Shown here piece after piece: positions 35,222 to 41,173 of a stretch of 64,000 nt of DNA. The position numbers and the translations under genes were made by a program. The DNA comes from Owenia fusiformis (lineage: Eukaryota > Annelida > Polychaeta > Sabellida > Oweniidae). The notes under the pieces were generated by a model, which saw only the letters and a list, made by a program, of their open reading frames with translations, had not been told where the DNA came from and did no database searches. The DNA is taken from positions 33,748,866-33,812,865 of the forward strand of contig CAIIXF020000001.1 of NCBI GenBank assembly GCA_903813345.2. The letters run 5' to 3'. Within the stretch, counting starts at the first letter, position 1, and every line of letters begins with the position of its first letter.

Positions 35222-36343
35222 ACAGTGAATAACTCAAATTTTGGATGGATTTGGTTCAAATTTTATATGCTGTTGCCTGGGTACAAAGGAGCCTTGCCCA
35301 AGAAGACATTTTCAAGATGGCCACCATATTACAAAATGGCGGCCATTTTTTGTATAAAAACATTATTTGTGATAACTCAAATCAAAAAAATACTGGTAGA
35401 CGGATTTTATTCAAACTTTATTAGCTTATGCCTTATGGGTGTAGGATCTCTGCTCGAGAAAGACATTTTCAAGATGGCCACCATATTTCAAAATGGTGGC
35501 CATCTTTGATAACTCAAATACCATTTAATGGATATTTGGTTCAGATTTTACATTTTGCCTAGAGACATAAGAACTCTGCTTGAGAAGGGATTTTCAAGAT
35601 GGCAGCTAAATTTCAAAATGGCTGCGATTTTTCATGAAAGAATGTAACCTTTGATAACTCAAATACCCGTTGACGTATTTGGTTCAAATTCTATATGCTG
35701 ATGCCTAGAGACATAGAAGTTCTGCTCAAGAAGACATTTTCAAGATGGACACTGCATTTCAAAATGGCCGCCATTTTTCGTAAAAAAACGTAATCATTGA
35801 TAACTCAAATACCAGTGGATGGATTTGGTTCCAATTTTATATGCTGATGTTTAGGGAAAAGGAGATCTGCTTCAGAAGAAATGTCAAAGGTGTCGGCTGA
35901 ATTTCAAAATGGCTGCTATTTTTCATAAAAATTGTAATCTTTGATAGCTCAAATATCATTGGACGGATTTACTTTAAATTTTATATACTGATGCCTAGGG
36001 ATAAAGAAGCTCTGCTTGAGAAGAAATTTTCATGGTGGCTGCTATTTATCGAAATCTCCACCATTTTTCATTAAACATGTAATCCTTGATAACTCAAGTA
36101 CCAGTTTACAGATTTGGATTAAATTGTATATGCTGATGCCTTGGGACATAGGAGCTCTGGTTAAGGAGAAATCTAAAGATGACAGCTGAATTTCAAAATG
36201 GCAACCATGTTTCATGAAAACATAATCTTTGATAATTCAAATACCAGTAGATGGATTTGGCTCAAATTTTTTATGGCCGCTATTTATCAAAACATGTTTT
36301 GTTCATTGGGGTTTGCTAGTCTGTGAAATTGCTGTTTTTCTAG
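35222..36343 (+). mobile_element. Helitron-like element H3 (5'-truncated), ends 26 bp before a PDE4 exon
   Basis: About seven ~145 bp units of the H1 family: GATAACTCAAATACC, GATTTGGTTCAAATTTTATA, TGATGCCTAGGGACA and TTTCAAAATGGCNGCCATTT. The 3' end is GTTCATTGGGGTTTGCTAG, a degraded hairpin, then TTGCTGTTTTTCTAG|T, ending at 36343. It has no recognisable 5' head; the left side continues across M2 into unrelated sequence. The terminal T-rich tract plus CTAG resembles a splice acceptor. Confidence 0.72.
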
Positions 36344-36369
36344 TAATTCTGTGTTAAAATAAATTTTAG

Positions 36370-36492
36370 GTGTTAGCTACTGACATGTCAAAGCATATGA
36401 GCTTACTCGCAGACCTGAAGACAATGGTTGAAACTAAAAAAGTGGCTGGATCTGGGGTACTGCTCCTTGATAACTACACAGATAGGATACAG
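36370..36492 (+). CDS. PDE4: PDE4-type cAMP phosphodiesterase, internal exon A
   Basis: The gene product hydrolyses cAMP to 5'-AMP and is an HD-type class I phosphodiesterase. This 123 bp exon encodes 41 residues, from [20 protein letters not shown] through a DNYTDRIQ end. This is a signature helix region of the catalytic domain, very close to what I know of animal PDE4/dunce proteins. The acceptor is AAATTTTAG|GTG and the donor CAG|GTAGGT; both ends are phase 0. Only 26 bp separate it from the upstream Helitron end, so branch point and pyrimidine tract must overlap the element. Preceding exons with the HNxxH and HDxDH metal motifs were not found in the upstream 36 kb. The frame is undamaged and joins the next exon in frame. 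Confidence 0.95.
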
Positions 36493-36584
36493 GTAGGTCC
36501 AAAATAATGATTAACACGTTTTGCAATACAAGTGCACAAGGCTTTTTCATGACAATTTACACAGTTGCAGTTTACACTTGCTGC

Positions 36585-37010
36585 TCAACTCAACCCCACG
36601 TCAACTCACCCTTAGTCAACTTGACCCCAAGTCAAGTCTACCCTTAGTCAAATTCACCCCAAGTCATCTCAACCCTTAGTCAACTCAACCCCAAGTCATC
36701 TCAACCCTTGGTCAACTCAACCCCAAGTCATCTCAACCCTTGGTCAACTCAACCCTTAGTCAACTCGACCCCAAGTCAAGTCAACCCTTAGTCGAATTGA
36801 CCCCAAGTCATCTCAATCCTTAGTCAACTCGACCCAAAGTCATCTCAACCCTTGGTCAACTCAATCCCAAGTCATCTCAACCCTTGGTCAACTCAACTCT
36901 TAGTCAATTCAACCCAAAGTCAAGTCAATCCTTAGTCATCTCAACCCTTAGTCAACTCGACCCAAAGTCATCTCAACCCTTGGTCAACTCAACCTTTAGT
37001 CAACATCATC
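36585..37010 (+). repeat. Intronic CAACCCTTAGTCAACT / CAACCCCAAGTCATCT minisatellite
   Basis: About 26 alternating 16-bp half-units (CAACYC + YYAGTCAACT and CAACCCMAAGTCATCT) form a loosely 32-bp period. The strand is strongly C-rich with almost no G apart from AGTC. It lies about 100 bp downstream of exon A. Confidence 0.9.
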
Positions 37011-37465
37011 AAACTACATCACATTTGTTTGTTTTCCTCACTTTCCAGACATTGTAAGTACTTGCATTCTAATACTCATAGCATCTCTCTGTTTCACATG
37101 AAACATGCTCTGAGATTATGAGGCATGTTCTGTGATCTGAGCACATCAGATGGGAAGAGTTATAATTGTCAATTTCGTTCGGTTTTTTGTGTAGCAAGAA
37201 GGAAAAAATATTCTACCATGAAAAATCATCTAAATTAGAAAAAGACATAGGAATTAGCCTTAACTACACTATTTGTGAAGCAGCATTGTATGTATAAGAT
37301 ATTGAAATAACGATTGAGTAACAATAATTGGATAAAATACAGTGCAAGTCTCAAAATTCGATAAAATAATGGCGAGAGACCAAGTGGACGAGTCCAGCGA
37401 GTTCCCACCGAGTAATTACAGTAGCATATAATTGAATCAGTATTAATAAAGGGTTTCTGTACTTA

Positions 37466-40154: not shown

Positions 40155-40538
40155 GTTTAAATAGAGAAAACTAAATAACTTAACAAAATCCTGATGCAAA
40201 GACAAACTGGCTTTCCAGTGTATGTACTTTTGTAGAATCAATATTAGAAAAATGAACTTTTTTAAGAATACTGGGTCAAATATGGGGCAGTCTTGTCACA
40301 TTCCCCTGTGTTTTGTATCACAATTTCTTCTAAGATCAAATTACTTTTATTGGACTATGAATGGCTTAGATAGTTGTCAGTTGTCAATTCTTTTTTGTAT
40401 GATGGATTCTCAAGAAACAGCAGTTTGTCTTATTTTCTCGAGGCAAATCTTTGCTCATTAATATTCATCCCCTTGTTTATATCATGTTTATATTGAATCA
40501 CTCTTAAATACATTGTCCATTTTTTATTATATTTTTAG

Positions 40539-40721
40539 GTATTGCAAAATATGGTTCACTGCTCAGATTTGAGTAACCCAACAAAACCACTGGACATATA
40601 CTGTGAGTGGACGAGACGAATAATGGAAGAATTCTTCAAACAGGGAGATATTGAACGAGAACGAGGGCTGGAGATCAGTCCAATGTGTGACCGGCATAAT
40701 TCTACAATTGAGAGGACACAG
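40539..40721 (+). CDS. PDE4: PDE4-type cAMP phosphodiesterase, internal exon B
   Basis: This 183 bp, phase-0 exon encodes 61 residues: [20 protein letters not shown] then [22 protein letters not shown] and [17 protein letters not shown]. The Asp in [11 protein letters not shown] is the fourth metal ligand of class I phosphodiesterases and the Asn three residues later contacts the nucleotide. The final Gln precedes the expected VGFID exon and is the invariant purine-recognising glutamine (family knowledge). Acceptor ATTTTTAG|GT, donor CAG|GTCAGT. A Helitron-like element begins 20 bp beyond the exon end. The next exon (VGFIDYIVHP region) was not found in the following 23 kb. The exon joins exon A in frame and shows no damage. 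Confidence 0.96.
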
Positions 40722-40741
40722 GTCAGTAGACAGTGTAGTTA

Positions 40742-40773
40742 TCCCACCGAACGAAGTTCGAGGGGGATATAGG
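40742..40773 (+). mobile_element. Helitron-like element H4, 5' head
   Basis: A|TCCCACCGAACGAAGTTCG then AGGGGGATATAG is the canonical head of the H1 family, starting 20 bp after PDE4 exon B. The first 11 bases are a perfect complement of the GTTCGGTGGGA motif near H1's 3' end. The element is interrupted at 40774 by a MITE. Body segments follow at 41174-41374, 45512-45594 and 52307-52815. Confidence 0.82.
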
Positions 40774-41173
40774 CAGGGCTGTCAACTTGGGACCACCTAA
40801 TATGAGTGACTTACAAATGTTGGACACCTAAGTCCAAATCTGAACACTTTTGTCCAAATTTTGAACACCTTTGGCCAACTTTTAAACACCTTTGGCCAAA
40901 GTTTGAGCACCTTTGCCAAACTTTGATCACCTCAAATTTTTCGCGATTGCTACGCTCGCGATATCTTCAATGGGGGGGAAGGTACGAAAATTTCCAATTA
41001 ACATGCGTGACATATACGGGATTCGCGTGACTAATCCGAACAAATTGCTTTCGGTTTTTTTCCGACGTTCGTATTTTTACCGTATCGTAAACATATTTTG
41101 ACAATTTTTCTACAGAAATATTTTTGCTTGACAATTACCAGGTAAAATGGGTATTTGCGTGACATTTTCTGTA
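40774..41173. mobile_element. CAGGGCTGTCAAC MITE, copy 3 (truncated)
   Basis: It begins CAGGGCTGTCAACTTGGGAC and runs through GGACACCTAAGTCC, TTTGAACACCTTTGGCC-type repeats, CGCGATTGCTACGCTCGCGA and GCGTGACA. It matches the reverse complement of the MITEs at 48790-49283 and 51691-52202 but stops near ATTTTCTG, lacking the far terminus. The flanking sequence (TATAGG before, TAGG after) fits insertion into the Helitron head. Confidence 0.75.

What the first reader, a model, noticed from the sequence alone, without database searches (positions are those of the whole stretch)
36300..40800. Two PDE4 catalytic exons are bracketed at 20-26 bp by Helitron-like termini
The 3' terminus (CTAG|T) of a Helitron-like element lies 26 bp before exon A. 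The 5' terminus (A|TCCCACC) of another copy starts 20 bp after exon B. The element end TTGCTGTTTTTCTAG is itself acceptor-like (T-rich tract plus AG), and TAGTAAT at the junction could be the branch site for the real acceptor at 36369. The splice signals of a conserved gene may therefore be partly transposon-derived, and exon A may have an alternative acceptor at 36343 that adds 26 nt with a stop.
Basis: partly seen in the sequence, partly recalled or inferred. Interest (0 to 1): 0.85.

Follow-up and report, generated by a model that had tools for sequence, protein, structure and literature searches.

The report
Rolling-circle transposon ends beside PDE4 exons
Two exons of a cAMP-phosphodiesterase gene sit 18 to 26 bases from the ends of common rolling-circle transposons of a known type, and other exons of the same gene do too, but nothing yet shows that the transposons supply or alter the splice signals.

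Summary
The anatomy is confirmed. Exon A (36370-36492) and exon B (40539-40721) are PDE4 catalytic exons. A transposon 3' end (CTAG, 36343) lies 26 bp before A; a transposon 5' end starts 18 bp after B. The elements fit HINEs (non-autonomous Helentrons), not canonical Helitrons: 12-bp subterminal inverted repeats, 3' palindrome, ~145-bp tandem array, TT target. The genome holds 771 exact 3' and 474 exact 5' ends. TCCCACC is internal; the conserved 5' sequence starts TTATCC. No capture: the exons lie outside two partial elements. The only other A/B pair found is in a ~28-kb segmental duplicate with the same element ends, its exon A split by another transposon. The pattern recurs in this gene: one more HINE 3' end and two more 5' ends lie within 60 bp of other PDE4 exons, all sense (P 0.0003 under uniform placement). 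A wider test for acceptor-like sites 20-60 nt after HINE 3' ends gave a modest excess (10 of 140, shuffles 3.5); the second sample alone (3 of 60, shuffles 1.3) did not replicate it. No transcript or ortholog was available. Most likely: ordinary intronic insertions into T-rich DNA that spared host splice sites.

The parts
36370..36492 (+). PDE4 catalytic exon A, 123 nt, 41 aa, donor GTAGGT
40539..40721 (+). PDE4 catalytic exon B, 183 nt, 61 aa, donor GTCAGT
35229..36275 (+). central ~145-bp tandem array of the upstream HINE copy (its left end was not found)
36288..36344 (+). right end of the upstream HINE: decayed subterminal repeat, lost hairpin, TGCTGTTTTTCTAG, T
   Evidence: 84% to window 3771-3827; 6 of 38 differences; hairpin absent
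36345..36369 (+). host spacer with the acceptor AG of exon A (36368-36369)
40722..40739 (+). host donor and 18-bp spacer after exon B
40740..40772 (+). left end of the downstream HINE: TATCCCACCGAACGAAGTTCGAGGGGGATATAG
41186..41372 (+). HINE central repeat of the downstream copy, between nested repeats (40774-41172 and about 41372-45514); a further piece at 45513-45595; no right end found
2972..3826 (+). complete HINE copy with both ends, used as reference

Best explanation
The two exons belong to one PDE4 gene of more than 160 kb with TE-rich introns. Old non-autonomous Helentrons (HINEs) inserted into T-rich intron DNA: one left its 3' end 26 bp before exon A, another its 5' end 18 bp after exon B. 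Both stopped short of the acceptor AG and the donor hexamer, so the exons are most likely still spliced from host sites; the element end TTTTTCTAG is at most a cryptic acceptor or a nearby T-tract. Shown: positions, family features, partial elements, gene order, sense orientation, presence before the segmental duplication. Inferred: splicing from host sites, and the T-rich target as the reason for the closeness.
For: Open, conserved exons with AG and GT sites of their own. PDE4 exons in order on one strand: UCR exons, catalytic exons before and after A and B. Ends shared by hundreds of copies and paired in the expected order. TT after CTAG in most of 140 flanks. The same ends and spacer in the duplicate.
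Against: Insertions this close to splice sites should be selected against, yet in this gene they are more frequent near exons than uniform placement gives. With a crude matrix typed from general knowledge the element AG at 36343 (-0.5) scores above the host AG (-1.9), and likewise at exon C (-0.4 against -1.5). TT at +2 is not met by the upstream copy itself (CTAG TA).
Confidence: 0.76

Rival explanations
1. The element end has been taken into splicing: TTTTTCTAG serves as T-tract or branch region for the acceptor at 36369, or as an alternative acceptor at 36343 giving a transcript with an immediate stop.
For: T-rich end plus AG at 36329-36343; TAGTAAT at 36341-36347 puts an A 23 nt before the acceptor; the host acceptors of exons A and C, both with a HINE end just upstream, score low (-1.9 and -1.5) while the first catalytic exon in the stretch scores 8.1.
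Against: No transcript evidence. Exon 2, which has no HINE end close upstream, also scores low (-0.9), and the element AGs score low too; exon B and the last exon were not scored. The matrix is not trained on this genome.
Confidence: 0.13
2. HINE target choice (TT in T-tracts) generally steers insertions to exon edges, above all polypyrimidine tracts, in sense orientation.
For: Five HINE ends within 60 bp of four PDE4 exons, all sense; P 0.0003 without the finding's own two ends. Acceptor-like site at 20-60 nt in 10 of 140 flanks against 3.5 in shuffles, 3.2 antisense, 5.1 in windows beyond 100 nt. T-over-A excess next to the 3' end (z 5.4 at +3 to +12).
Against: The second sample alone is weak (3 of 60; 43 of 300 shuffles reach 3), and in the first sample 3 of 24 far windows reach the observed 7. 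Near sites look no more coding than far or antisense ones. Pfam-supported sense ORFs that I placed begin more than 60 nt out. Pfam families at E up to 0.001: 8 sense, 3 antisense (P 0.11). 0 of 16 exons of other PDE genes have an end within 500 bp.
Confidence: 0.14
3. The exon pair was captured or copied by a Helitron, and these are transposon-borne copies rather than the gene.
For: A second copy of exons A and B lies about 92-95 kb downstream.
Against: The exons lie outside the elements (3' end, exons, 5' end) and in order within the gene. The second copy is part of a ~28-kb segment whose limits are not the element ends.
Confidence: 0.01

Closest known systems
Cg_HINE elements of the Pacific oyster (PMC7492417; passages, section 9)
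   Same: Subterminal inverted repeats of 11-12 bp, an inverted repeat beside the left one, GTCC-type microsatellite, central satellite-like array, 3' palindrome, TT/T-rich target
   Different: Sequences were not compared with the published consensus (not held here); the paper's section reports insertions in both orientations and copies in non-coding parts of some genes, and that section does not mention exon edges
DINE-1 / HINE (Helentron-associated elements; PMC4067079, passages)
   Same: Subterminal inverted repeats, 3' stem-loop, TT preference, no coding capacity
   Different: The 3' end is CTAG, which that paper gives for canonical Helitrons (CTRR) and a proto-Helentron
Canonical Helitron, e.g. 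Helraiser (PMC4778049, passages)
   Different: No 5' TC at an A|T target: TTATCC is conserved across the supposed boundary
Introners (PMC9860276; search listing and start of abstract only)
   Same: Transposons linked with intron ends
   Different: Here the elements sit inside introns of a conserved gene; they do not form the introns

Membership tests
HINE (non-autonomous Helentron) | Subterminal inverted repeats of at least 11 bp | tested here: met
   ATCCCACCGAAC (474 exact 5' 20-mers) is the perfect reverse complement of GTTCGGTGGGAT (364 exact 3' 43-mers). In the upstream window copy the 3' repeat is decayed.
HINE (non-autonomous Helentron) | Inverted repeat beside the left subterminal repeat, and a microsatellite | tested here: met
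   CGAACGAAGTTCG, and GTCCGTCCGTTCGTCC in the complete copy at 2972-3826. In the downstream window copy the microsatellite is not seen; another repeat starts at 40774.
HINE (non-autonomous Helentron) | Central tandem array | tested here: met
   Period 145 bp at 35502-36275 and 3044-3679
HINE (non-autonomous Helentron) | Palindrome near the 3' end | tested here: met
   ACTCCGTGGAGT; complete copy folds at -3.1 kcal/mol, z -2.0; the upstream window copy has lost it (-0.4, z 0.5)
HINE (non-autonomous Helentron) | TT or T-rich target | tested here: met
   After CTAG: T 136 of 140, then T 128 of 140. The upstream window copy has TA.
HINE (non-autonomous Helentron) | No target site duplication | tested here: inconclusive
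   Five empty-site queries against the 161 kb; only one found a paralogue spanning the junction, and it is too diverged to place the boundary
HINE (non-autonomous Helentron) | Autonomous partner with the same ends | not tested
   58 Helitron_like_N matches, many in open frames above 2,000 aa; their ends were not read
Canonical Helitron | 5' TC at an A|T target | tested here: not met
   TTATCC conserved in 14 of 14 distinct 5' ends read
Canonical Helitron | 3' CTRR followed by T | tested here: met
   CTAG then T in 136 of 140
Helitron gene capture | Host exons enclosed between 5' and 3' ends of one element | tested here: not met
   Order is 3' end, exon A, exon B, 5' end, both elements partial
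Transposon-derived splice site (exaptation) | Splice junction or branch point inside the element in transcripts | not testable with these tools
   No transcripts held

The most novel reading that the evidence does not exclude
The TT/T-tract target of Helentron-type elements steers them, in sense orientation, to the edges of exons, above all the polypyrimidine tracts before acceptors, so that in HINE-rich genomes a class of conserved exons is spliced with partly transposon-made intron ends; PDE4, with five such ends at four exons, is the first visible case.
Probability: 0.14. Interest if true: 0.68.

Novelty: new member of a known kind. Interest (0 to 1): 0.4.

Why it matters
If only chance, it is one more example of transposons filling introns up to the splice sites. 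If the excess at exon edges holds genome-wide, a rolling-circle transposon's target choice overlaps with the splicing code, which would give transposons a direct and checkable route to reshape splice signals of conserved genes. The count needs only gene models and the two end motifs given here.

Tried and rejected
Helitron capture of PDE4 exons: rejected (order of ends, gene order, segmental duplicate).

Unmerged allele as the source of the second A/B copy: not excluded, but no Ns occur in the 161 kb and about 66 kb of other sequence lies between the copies.

A duplicated acceptor region at exon A, as seen at exon C: rejected for A (167 of 1000 shuffles as good); for exon C 0 of 1000.

Confirming exons just after HINE 3' ends: seven of 140 flanks looked exon-like to my eye at 20-60 nt (L031, L035, L054, L068, L072, L115, L118). 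Of these L031, L035, L054 and L118 gave no Pfam family and L072 only RNase_H (E 0.0039) more than 60 nt out; L068 and L115 were not scanned singly. A strict exon finder gave 5 sense against 1 antisense, 1 of the 5 near.

The acceptor test was first made at 9-64 nt (9 of 80; shuffle mean 2.0; far windows mean 4.0, largest 9); the 20-60 nt range was fixed before the second sample. At thresholds 3.5 and 5.5 the pooled excess is 12 against 7.0 (14 of 300 shuffles) and 3 against 1.3 (46 of 300).

Strand clustering of 3' ends: 22 of 32 neighbours within 150 kb on the same strand, 33 of 67 beyond; not pursued.

Rows dropped: in the 161-kb scan matches of score 22-24, near the largest in one shuffle (22 and 23), were treated as chance: + strand 33738939, 33773438, 33832425, 33836023, 33870580; - strand 33765930, 33811530, 33863353. 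Kept despite low scores: 33744143 (22, an indel variant) and 33817596 (23, pairs with a 5' end 1.5 kb upstream). Two - strand 5' rows are palindromic readings of + copies. If the dropped rows inside the gene were counted, 3' ends would be 10 sense and 3 antisense. The second flank sample left out two tandem copies on C3 and one C3 copy already seen; of the 66 ends remaining, 60 were fetched.

Full report
What is in the window. The window is C1:33748866-33812865 of a 498-Mb genome in 525 contigs. Exon A (36370-36492) and exon B (40539-40721) translate without stops to 41 and 61 residues. Together they match Pfam PDEase_I (E 7.3e-30) and have PDE4D chains as best PDB matches (E 6.3e-54). The sizes, 123 and 183 nt, are those I recall for mammalian PDE4 exons. 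PDE4 exons stand in order on the + strand: PDE4_UCR exons at 33666488, 33713834 and 33722750, catalytic exons at 33739441, 33739657 and 33740816 (the last here called exon C), then A, B and the last exon at 33833970.

The two element ends. TTGCTGTTTTTCTAG ends at 36343, 26 nt before exon A; 36288-36344 matches window 3771-3827 at 84%. GTTATCCCACCGAACGAAGTTCGAGGGGGATATAG stands at 40738-40772, just after exon B. They are the two ends of one repeat family: 771 exact copies of a 19-base 3' end (reversed control 0), 364 of a 43-base 3' end (control 0) and 474 of a 20-base 5' end (control 0). Only the first 100 places of each were listed. On C1, 37 of 58 listed 5' ends have a listed 3' end downstream on the same strand within 5 kb (median length 1,178 bp), and none has one on the opposite strand.

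What family. The anatomy is that of HINEs: a 12-bp subterminal inverted repeat pair that is perfect in the common forms, a complementary inverted repeat beside the left one, a GTCC-type microsatellite, a ~145-bp tandem array and a short hairpin before the 3' end. The oyster Cg_HINE description has the same parts and a TT target (PMC7492417, passages and section 9 seen), and DINE-1/HINE are similar (PMC4067079, passages seen). Here T follows CTAG in 78 of 80 and 58 of 60 flanks, and a second T in 74 of 80 and 54 of 60. The conserved left sequence is TTATCC in 14 of 14 distinct 5' ends read, so A|TCCCACC is not a terminus; many matches begin even further out, at 40734-40736. The canonical Helitron label fails at the 5' end, though the 3' CTAG is shared. 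The genome also has 58 matches to the Helitron Rep domain; whether they share these ends was not tested.

State of the two copies. The upstream one keeps its array and right end; its hairpin is lost and no left end was found for it. The downstream one keeps a perfect left end, is interrupted by other repeats (40774-41172 and about 41372-45514), and no right end was found. The exons lie outside both elements, the opposite of gene capture.

The second copy of the exons. Exons A and B recur about 92-95 kb downstream in a ~28-kb segment (C1:33858765-33886635, against 33760199-33792868), mostly 98-99.8% identical in the aligned blocks, with insertions present in only one copy; there are no Ns in the 161 kb. 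It lies beyond the only last exon that the Pfam search found. It carries the same HINE 3' end with the same host spacer (98% over 93 bases) and the same 5' end (100% over 80 bases), so both insertions predate the duplication. In that copy exon A is split after 11 nt by an element of about 1.9 kb with 9-bp target duplications GTTAGCTAC and inverted ends GGAATGTACT. Whether this is a real duplication or an unmerged allele cannot be decided here.

The pattern in the rest of the gene. Exon C has a HINE 3' end 47 nt upstream and a HINE 5' end 59 nt downstream, and the third UCR exon has a HINE 5' end about 29 nt downstream. All are sense. In the contiguous 95 kb, 4 of 16 ends lie within 60 bp of an exon (uniform mean 0.11; 0 of 200,000 placements reach 4). 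With exons A and B and the finding's own two ends removed and the UCR stretches added, 3 of 15 do (mean 0.13, P 0.0003). Cautions: uniform placement is a simple model, the two ends of one short element are not independent, three of the UCR stretches were fetched because they hold exons, and there are many genes in which to look. None of 16 exons of other PDE genes has a HINE end within 500 bp. In the contiguous part 8 of 8 5' ends and 7 of 8 3' ends are sense, after low-scoring rows were dropped as told in Tried and rejected.

Is it general? I read the downstream flanks of 140 exact 3' ends: 80 drawn at random from 99 listed C1 ends, then 60 of 66 further ends on C1-C3. An acceptor-like site at 20-60 nt occurs in 7 of 80 (dinucleotide shuffles: mean 1.95, 0 of 300 reach 7; but 3 of 24 windows beyond 100 nt do) and in 3 of 60 (mean 1.34, 43 of 300 reach 3). 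Pooled it is 10 of 140 against 3.5 shuffled (2 of 300), 5.1 in windows beyond 100 nt and 3.2 antisense. Coding evidence does not single out the near sites: 4 of 15 near, 12 of 40 far and 11 of 41 antisense sites are GC-rich and open, and the Pfam-supported sense ORFs that I placed (RH_dom, Serinc, TT21, RNase_H) begin more than 60 nt out. Families at E up to 0.001 are 8 among 208 sense ORFs and 3 among 185 antisense ORFs (P 0.11). T exceeds A next to the 3' end (z 5.4 at +3 to +12) and weakly out to about 100 nt. A targeting effect is possible but not established.

Splicing. Use of the AG at 36343 would add TAATTCTGTGTTAAAATAAATTTTAG, whose first codon is a stop in exon A's frame. With a crude matrix the element AG (-0.5) outscores the host AG (-1.9), and likewise at exon C (-0.4 against -1.5); the first catalytic exon in the stretch scores 8.1 and exon 2, without a HINE end close by, -0.9 (exon B and the last exon were missed by an off-by-one and not scored). 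By the first-AG rule (recalled), productive splicing at 36369 needs a branch point after 36343; TAGTAAT with its A at 36346, 23 nt before the acceptor, is a fair candidate and would straddle the junction. This is inference only.

Literature. The searches in an open-access library listed no paper whose title or abstract start reports Helitron or HINE ends enriched at acceptors. I saw passages of PMC7492417, PMC4067079 and PMC4778049 (the last: Helraiser insertions favour promoters and bodies of highly expressed genes); the other papers only as listings. This is not proof of absence.

Verdict. The most likely reading is ordinary HINE insertion into T-rich intron DNA that spared the host splice sites. 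The recurrence at other PDE4 exons is the part worth a genome-wide count.

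Noticed in passing
G000 C1:33875690-33877573 (L013): In the segmental duplicate, exon A is split after 11 nt by an element of about 1.9 kb with 9-bp target duplications and inverted ends starting GGAATGTACT.
   Followed up: partly
G000 C1:33740770-33740816 (L015): Directly after a HINE 3' end lies a degenerate copy of the first ~30 nt of PDE4 exon C, 43 nt upstream of the exon itself (0 of 1000 shuffles as good); it holds an AG and a CTAAC.
   Followed up: partly
window 31796-35212: A 3.4-kb insertion bounded by inverted arrays of a 15-bp unit (31804-31953 and 35054-35206) with a 9-bp target duplication GACTTGAGC; absent from the duplicate.
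   Followed up: partly
window about 41840-43330: A 1.5-kb insertion with inverted ends CCCAATTGAA, absent from the duplicate.
   Followed up: no
window 36585-37004: About 26 copies of a 16-bp repeat (TCAACTCAACCCTTAG) in the intron between exons A and B.
   Followed up: no
G000 C3:2834048-2838300: Three HINE 3' ends at an exact spacing of 2,105 bp, as for head-to-tail element copies.
   Followed up: no
G000, whole genome: 58 Helitron_like_N matches, many in open frames above 2,000 aa and many on small contigs.
   Followed up: no
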